DNA from: Prevotella sp. | GTDB taxonomy: Bacteria; Bacteroidota; Bacteroidia; Bacteroidales; Dysgonomonadaceae | DNA length: 43,478 bases | Direction of reading: 5' to 3' | Assembly (NCBI GenBank): GCA_031273295.1 | Contig: JAISSD010000005.1 | Location: 1-43,478, forward strand | Shown here: piece by piece, positions 1 through 1,118 of the stretch | Layout: each line of letters begins with the position of its first letter | Position numbering within the stretch: the stretch's first letter is position 1 | Made by a program: the position numbers and the translations under genes | The notes under the pieces: generated by a model | Database searches by the model: none | What the model was told of the DNA's origin: nothing | What the model saw: only the letters and a program-made list of their open reading frames with translations

Positions 1-1115
1 TGAAATCTCCCTGGCCTTGGCGCGTTAATGTCAAAAGCGACCCGGACGCTATTATCCAGACCTTTACCGCATCCGGGACGGGAACGGGCAGTGACGAGAC
101 TTTTTCTTTTACACTTAAAAACAATACATCGGCCTATTCCGGTTTAAAGTCTGTCGCCATCCTTGAGTTCTTCAGTCCAACCGGCGAGTTTACGCCTTGT
201 GAGCAGACAATCGAGTTGCCTGGAGGCGCAAGCACATACACGCCAACAAAACATAACGGTTGGGCTGGCAGCAATATTTACTGGAACGGGAGCAAGCTGA
301 CTTTCGATGCCACTCCTACCTATAACCCTACCAATGCTATCGGCTATGAGGGTTACCAGGGCGTCTTCTTCAAATGGGGCAGCCTCATAGGAATAGATCC
401 AATGCGCGGGAATGCAAACGCCGCCTGGACAAATGGCACCGGCAACACTAACAAGGTATACGTTCCTACTTATAATTCCGCTACCCCCACATCCTCTGGT
501 TGGCAGATCATCACTGCCGGCACCTCCAGCACCTACTATACCTGGGGTAATATTCCATATGCCGATGCCAGTATTATTGGCAACGAGACTCTTCCGGCAA
601 GGGCGAGACTTTATGAGATAACTACTCCCGCAAACATCGCAAACCATAGAGGGGATATTTGCCGTTATCTGACTGAAACAGGCGCAGCTCCGGGCGCAGC
701 CTCGGGAACAAAATGGCGTATGCCGGTTGCCAATGAATTTTCAGGCACCACTACTGACTATCCAATCAAGCCTTCAACAAATACCAGTTGGCCCGATTAT
801 ACCGGTAGTTTTGCCGGTAATGCCTACGGTACTTGGACGGTGGTGAATGCCAGCAGTATCGTCGTGGGCCGCCGCAAGACTAACGAACCCGCCGGCACAT
901 ACCAGCCGTTCTTTCCCGCTGGCGGGCGCCGTTGCCCCAGTCCCCACGAGCTGGGCAACGTAGGCACCGACGGCTACTCCTTTTCGTCCTCGCCACGCAG
1001 TAGTACGTCCGCGTACCGCACGTGGCTCCTCAGTGGCAACGTGAACTCTGACTTCAACTCCGACCTCCACTCTCGGCCGTGCGCCTTCTCCGTCCGTTGT
1101 GTTAAAGAATTGTAG
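1..1115 (+). CDS. 5'-truncated surface protein with BACON/fimbrillin-like N-terminal part and FISUMP/C-type-lectin-like C-terminus (candidate DGR variable protein)
   Basis: Frame stays open from base 3 (KSPWPWRVNVKSDPDAIIQTFTASG...) into the ORF listed at 216 (a TTG codon, probably not the true start). C-terminus GDICRYLTE...KWRMPVANEF...SFSSSPRSSTSAYRTWLLSGNVNSDFNSDLHSRPCAFSVRCVKEL. Confidence 0.8.
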   Translation, partial: KSPWPWRVNVKSDPDAIIQTFTASGTGTGSDETFSFTLKNNTSAYSGLKSVAILEFFSPTGEFTPCEQTIELPGGASTYTPTKHNGWAGSNIYWNGSKLTFDATPTYNPTNAIGYEGYQGVFFKWGSLIGIDPMRGNANAAWTNGTGNTNKVYVPTYNSATPTSSGWQIITAGTSSTYYTWGNIPYADASIIGNETLPARARLYEITTPANIANHRGDICRYLTETGAAPGAASGTKWRMPVANEFSGTTTDYPIKPSTNTSWPDYTGSFAGNAYGTWTVVNASSIVVGRRKTNEPAGTYQPFFPAGGRRCPSPHELGNVGTDGYSFSSSPRSSTSAYRTWLLSGNVNSDFNSDLHSRPCAFSVRCVKEL

Positions 1116-1118
1116 CGC
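927..1118 (+). other. Candidate DGR variable region VR1
   Basis: C-terminal codons TCT GAC TTC AAC TCC GAC CTC CAC are mostly NNC, and TAC TCC TTT is explainable by A-only changes from TAC TAC TAT. Ends in GAATTGTAGCGC, shared with the other two loci. Confidence 0.5.

What the first reader, a model, noticed from the sequence alone, without database searches (positions are those of the whole stretch)
927..1118. VR1: C-terminal coding stretch looks like an adenine-mutagenised DGR variable region
The tail codons (TAC TCC TTT ... CGC AGT AGT ACG TCC GCG TAC CGC ... AAC GTG AAC TCT GAC TTC AAC TCC GAC CTC CAC TCT CGG CCG TGC GCC TTC TCC) are dominated by NNC/NNT. They can be derived by A-only substitutions from an AAC/AAT/TAC-rich template of the Asn-rich kind known for Bacteroidetes DGRs. 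Even the anomalous YSFSSS (where YWSSS or YYYSSS would be expected) fits TAC TAC TAT with A>C and A>T changes. The domain type (FISUMP/C-type-lectin-like, ending SVRCV) is a known DGR target class. Observed: codon pattern. Established: DGR adenine mutagenesis and lectin-fold targets. Inferred: that this gene is such a target.
Basis: partly seen in the sequence, partly recalled or inferred. Interest (0 to 1): 0.82.

Follow-up and report, generated by a model that had tools for sequence, protein, structure and literature searches.

The report
Retroelement-mutated adhesin tip, many siblings
The end of this Bacteroidales surface gene carries the mark of a diversity-generating retroelement, which rewrites chosen codons of a protein by copying a template badly at A; the same genome seems to hold about 60 such target genes, at least 7 of the copying enzymes and dozens of template-like copies, more than in the published cases I found.

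Summary
Window 927-1088 is a DGR (diversity-generating retroelement) variable region (VR) at the 3' end of a fimbrillin-like surface gene. Against its two closest paralogs, codon positions 1 and 2 differ at 44-52% in this stretch while position 3 differs at 21-23%; the preceding constant stretch differs at 6-18% of positions 1 and 2. Against the best template in the genome (contig C154), 22 of 40 template A's differ but only 20 of 126 other bases (p = 4e-6). The genome encodes at least seven DGR-type RTs and one Avd. The exact template of this VR is not in the assembly; three RT loci are cut by contig ends where a template is expected. Present activity is untested, the two family-A templates are damaged, and no hairpin follows this VR. 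What is unusual is scale: about 64 VR genes in four families, about 11 A-rich templates, and almost 30 template-type copies, mostly non-coding, whose cores are themselves adenine-diversified. Locally a new member; genome-wide apparently an extreme variant, resting on one fragmented assembly.

The parts
3..1115 (+). Family-A target gene, C-terminal 370 aa of a fimbrillin-like surface protein; 5' part lost at the contig start (full-length paralogs 848-907 aa with lipoprotein-like signal and BACON domain)
927..1088 (+). Hypervariable core of the DGR variable region
   Evidence: A-biased mismatches to template C154; codon positions 1/2 against 3
1089..1111 (+). Conserved 3' end of the VR (about TCCGTCCGTTGTGTTAAAGAATT), shared with the C154 templates; homology stops after it. 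Proposed anchor (IMH-like) by position only
1106..1120 (+). Short motif GAAT(A/T)GTAGCG around the stop codon, common after family-A VRs and also after several family-B VRs and the family-C gene of this window; function unknown
26075..28195 (-). Family-C target gene (FimD/Mfa1-like N-terminal part, FISUMP-like end); VR about 26081-26260, template family C41
   Evidence: A 19/39 against 29/128 non-A mismatches
42282..43478 (-). Family-B target gene (5' part lost at the contig end); VR about 42288-42460, best template C261
   Evidence: A 32/56 against 20/112 non-A mismatches

Best explanation
Window 927-1088 is a DGR variable region. A DGR reverse transcriptase encoded elsewhere in the genome copied an A-rich, Asn-codon-rich template RNA with errors opposite A, and the cDNA replaced the 3' end of this surface gene, anchored at the conserved stretch CGTCCGTTGTGTTAAAGAATT. 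The gene is one of about 21 family-A targets; families B (about 34), C (5) and D (5) in the same genome use other templates. Shown: adenine-biased divergence of the VR; presence of RTs, one Avd and templates; many paralogous VRs. Inferred: retrohoming in trans, the anchor position, a lost or unassembled exact template, and a role in binding surfaces (other cells, glycans or phages). Not shown: that this VR is still rewritten today.
For: Codon positions 1/2 at 44-52% against 21-23% at position 3 in the VR. Mismatches to template C154: A 22/40, C 6/53, G 8/39, T 6/34, p 4e-6, asymmetry 22 against 6, p 0.004. Constant-region control without such bias. RTs on C154 and C68 match PDB RT 8ub7 best by far; Avd NF033474/PF22296 on C68. 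Family D in the same genome is a clean DGR: 68/195 A against 5/630 non-A mismatches over five VRs. Metagenome protein P0091, 80% identical to the C185 paralog over the compared region, has the same 34 residues before the VR and a different VR. Related RTs in Alistipes and Bacteroides heparinolyticus sit in canonical DGRs with targets of the same class.
Against: No template in the assembly matches at all non-A sites (best: 20/126 non-A mismatches and codon-sized indels). The two A-rich family-A copies carry a stop codon or a frameshift. No inverted repeat of 5 bp or more follows this VR. No population data.
Confidence: 0.88

Rival explanations
1. DGR relic. The VR was made by a DGR, but family A is decaying and this gene is no longer rewritten. 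This refines the best explanation and does not exclude it.
For: Non-A mismatches of 16-39% in family A against 0-2% in family D; both A-rich family-A copies damaged and the copies just upstream of the C154 and C152 RTs adenine-poor; no post-VR hairpin.
Against: RTs on C154 and C152 are open reading frames; at least three further RT loci lose their upstream side at contig ends, so an intact template may simply be unassembled.
Confidence: 0.4
2. Ordinary diversifying selection and paralog divergence of a repeated surface domain, without a retroelement.
For: Large family of surface proteins with variable ends.
Against: Does not predict bias to template A and its asymmetry, nor the same pattern in mostly non-coding cassettes (core 50% A and 22% non-A; flank 11% and 14%), nor RT, Avd and clean family-D pairs in the same genome.
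Confidence: 0.05
3. Gene conversion from silent cassettes, as in pilin antigenic variation: the template-type copies are donors that overwrite expressed VRs.
For: Almost 30 mostly non-coding copies, some in tandem at about 418 bp, with diverse cores.
Against: No cassette core is a near match of an expressed VR in all-against-all comparison; cassette cores are themselves adenine-diversified, so an adenine mutator is still needed.
Confidence: 0.05

Closest known systems
Canonical Bacteroidales DGRs with fimbrillin-like targets (Alistipes sp. RGIG9040, L215; Bacteroides heparinolyticus DSM 23917, L220; Bacteroides tip pilins, reviewed in PMC12632263)
   Same: RT family (47-53% identity), Asn-rich TR, adenine mutagenesis, VR at the C-terminal end of a large fimbrillin-like protein
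   Different: There one TR just upstream of the RT serves one nearby VR with nearly all mismatches at A; here VRs, TRs and RTs are dispersed over many contigs and the window VR has no exact TR
Thiohalocapsa PB-PSB1 multi-DGR genome (PMC10907252)
   Same: Many DGR loci in one genome, incomplete loci, targets apparently served in trans
   Different: Nine loci and 15 targets there, described as unusually high; here about 64 VR genes and template-type arrays, in a smaller genome
Cyanobacterial DGRs with remote targets (PMC7517822)
   Same: Remote VR paralogs dispersed over the genome
   Different: 58 DGRs and 90 target genes over 52 genomes there
Bordetella phage BPP-1 DGR (PMC3240598)
   Same: RT homology (8ub7 assigned to BPP-1 from memory), Avd in one locus, adenine mutagenesis
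   Different: BPP-1 needs a hairpin/cruciform after the VR; a comparable inverted repeat is seen after many family-B VRs but not after the window VR

Membership tests
Diversity-generating retroelement (DGR) target | DGR-type reverse transcriptase in the genome | tested here: met
   At least seven copies; best PDB hit 8ub7 (E 7e-33, 1e-31), group II intron and Drt RTs far behind; relatives sit in canonical DGRs
Diversity-generating retroelement (DGR) target | TR-VR pair with mismatches essentially only at template A | tested here: inconclusive
   Strong A bias for the window VR (22/40 against 20/126) but the exact TR was not found; met cleanly for family D
Diversity-generating retroelement (DGR) target | VR at the 3' end of a coding gene | tested here: met
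   VR ends 2 bases before the stop codon 1113-1115
Diversity-generating retroelement (DGR) target | Avd accessory protein | tested here: met
   NF033474 E 3.6e-14 and PF22296 above cut-off on C68 only; not found at C154
Diversity-generating retroelement (DGR) target | Hairpin/cruciform after the VR (shown for BPP-1, common in phage DGRs) | tested here: not met
   No stem of 5 bp or more within 45 nt after the window VR; 18/34 in family B against 4.5 expected with mononucleotide shuffles. Not a universal criterion for cellular DGRs
Diversity-generating retroelement (DGR) target | Ongoing variation at template-A codons in the population | not testable with these tools
   No reads available; only one related protein, P0091, with a different VR
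FISUMP / C-type-lectin-like domain | Profile match or fold match of the VR domain | tested here: inconclusive
   Window protein: no Pfam hit; TIGR02145 at E 1.9e-6 for P0091 and 0.018 for P0090, both below the curated cut-off. Confident model (pLDDT 90, pTM 0.91) but no significant PDB or viral match; best viral hits are FISUMP proteins at E 0.11 and 2.2

The most novel reading that the evidence does not exclude
The templates themselves are diversified. In this genome template units of about 418 bp (structured 5' flank, core, TR-type 3' end) have multiplied into tandem and dispersed arrays and are overwritten by mutagenised cDNA, so that the pool of templates changes together with about 64 targets: a two-level DGR rather than one fixed template serving a target.
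Probability: 0.25. Interest if true: 0.85.

Novelty: new variant of a known kind. Interest (0 to 1): 0.64.

Why it matters
In the papers I could read, nine loci with 15 targets was called unusually high for one genome (PMC10907252). This 4.2-Mb genome has about 64 VR genes, so much of its surface repertoire may be, or have been, hypermutable. [quoted passage not shown] Template-type copies with adenine-diversified cores also make a basic question testable: what normally keeps a DGR from rewriting its own template?

Tried and rejected
Direct template search for the window VR: A-permissive local alignment and ungapped scans found only the C154 copies, with 12-16 violations over 74 nt; low-complexity A-rich hits were discarded. 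Pairing every VR with every cassette as template gave no clean pair outside family D, so neither a cassette-as-template nor a pilin-like donor relation is supported. The C76 RT was set aside as a group II intron. Fold searches against PDB (two models) and viral structures gave nothing significant, so the lectin fold is left open. Relatives' genomes have 0-3 homologs of the window gene and few DGR RTs, so no syntenic ortholog could be compared. The Bacteroides DGR paper cited as ref. 165 in PMC12632263 is not held.

Full report
What was checked. The ORF 3-1115 (+) is open from the contig start and ends SVRCVKEL. It is the last 370 residues of a protein whose full-length paralogs (for example 869 and 907 aa on C185) begin with a lipoprotein-like signal (LGSCKN, SFGSCKN); the one scanned carries a BACON domain. 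The quoted codons are present. NNY is not in excess in the stretch, but NNC is, and A is depleted, so the pattern as worded is a weak signal; comparison makes it strong.

Internal test. Against the paralogs on C312 and C185 the constant stretch 500-924 differs at 6-18% of first and second codon positions. In 924-1080 these rise to 44-52%, while third positions stay at 21-23%. Ordinary divergence usually changes third positions most; mutation of AAC/AAT/TAC-type template codons changes the first two.

Template test. Searches of the window's own genome (4.17 Mb, 312 contigs, 98% complete, 2.5% contamination) found about 100 matches to the gene and nine RT matches. Downstream of the RT on C154 lies an Asn-codon-rich copy (RNNNNGALNNVG...NPANNNYRTFGLPVRCVKEF). 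Aligned with neutral scoring, the window VR differs from it at 22 of 40 A's and at 6/53 C, 8/39 G and 6/34 T (p 3.8e-6, asymmetry p 0.004). The same comparison in the constant region of the paralogs gives 14-16% at A and 6-17% at other bases. The pair is not exact: 20 non-A mismatches and codon-sized indels remain, so the C154 copy is best read as a sister of the true template. At least three RT loci (C104, C108, C310) are cut by contig ends inside the RT, so any template upstream of them is missing from the assembly.

Four families. VR genes fall into A (SVRCVK, about 21), B (SVRCVR, about 34), C (SVRC[IL]Q, 5) and D (PARCVK, 5); a few counted copies are short or cut by contig ends. Mismatch rates at template A and at other bases are A 0.51 and 0.26, B 0.54 and 0.19, C 0.53 and 0.28, D 0.35 and 0.008. 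Family D is a textbook system (target, Avd, TR and RT on C68, four remote targets) and looks recently active. Family B has seven A-rich templates on as many contigs (C49, C261, C121, C167, C95, C204, C192), two of them only partly recovered. The window holds one gene each of A, B and C.

Enzymes. The C154, C152, C41 and C68 RTs are complete; C104, C108 and C310 are partial; shorter RT ends occur on C84, C38, C258, C227 and C97. The C154 and C68 RTs match the PDB RT 8ub7 at E 7e-33 and 1e-31, with group II intron, retron-type and Drt RTs far behind. That 8ub7 is the BPP-1 DGR RT is from memory; the file calls it 'Reverse transcriptase'. Named relatives at 47-53% identity were searched for TR-VR pairs: 12 of 19 loci have one TR just upstream of the RT and a VR with most or all mismatches at A. 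Alistipes and B. heparinolyticus targets are of the same surface-protein class.

The strange part. Almost 30 full or partial copies of the family-A template unit exist, mostly non-coding, some in tandem at about 418 bp spacing (C154, C152, C125, C264). They share the TR-type 5' flank and the TR-type 3' end (KEFI...), not the VR-type end. Relative to the C154 copy the flanks differ at 11% (A) and 14% (non-A), the tail at 0% and 1.5%, but the core at 50% (A) and 22% (non-A), p 5e-51 (sites in related copies are not independent, so the p value is nominal). Part of the 22% reflects columns where most copies have A and C154 does not. Nearly all have VR-like A content, including those just upstream of the C154 and C152 RTs, where the template usually sits. 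The flank folds into five helices with 98.4% of cells paired and 6 pairs changed on both sides against 2.1 in shuffles; this fits a conserved RNA, but the structure was predicted from these same sequences. Either templates lost protection and rewrite one another (my lead), or these are dead copies of older diversified sequence. Expression and read data would decide.

Target-site element. After many family-B VRs an inverted repeat follows (TAGCGCC-TTA-GGCGCTA and variants such as GCGTC-GGA-GACGC); 18/34 have a stem of 5 bp or more against 4.5 expected with mononucleotide shuffles, and the two TRs checked lack it. This resembles the hairpin/cruciform needed by BPP-1 (PMC3240598). Family A, including the window VR, lacks it.

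Known or new. DGRs, fimbrillin-like targets and remote targets are known (PMC12632263, PMC7517822, PMC10907252). The highest count of A-mutated targets per genome that I found is nine loci with 15 targets. One paper reports a genome with 91 TR-VR pairs but calls it atypical, with few A-to-N changes (PMC6642488). So the window VR is a new member of a known kind; the genome-wide arrangement looks like an extreme variant. My literature reading was limited to open papers, and the count rests on one fragmented assembly; both should be checked before the scale is claimed as a record.

Noticed in passing
window 26075-28195 (-) and 28350-29369 (-): FimD/Mfa1-like gene with a family-C VR next to an Mfa2-like anchor gene: looks like a type V fimbrial pair whose tip is a DGR target.
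   Followed up: partly
window 7339-24538 (+): ABC transporter pair followed by a long run of glycosyltransferase-like genes, a likely surface polysaccharide cluster (from the translations only).
   Followed up: no
window 1427-1468 and 35430-35471: 42-nt intergenic repeat, 93% identical, not explained.
   Followed up: no
L142 9566-9670 and similar stretches in L070, L114, L062, L061, L095, L118, L103: A repeat of about 100 nt upstream of the C49 template occurs at many other places of the genome at 92-97% identity; possibly a mobile element that helps spread templates.
   Followed up: no
L001 (C76): RT of 602 aa framed by sequence that looks like a group II intron in a conjugation gene; not a DGR RT.
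   Followed up: partly
L065 1378-2271 (+): 297-aa ORF without Pfam match between template and RT on C41, in the place where Avd is often found.
   Followed up: partly
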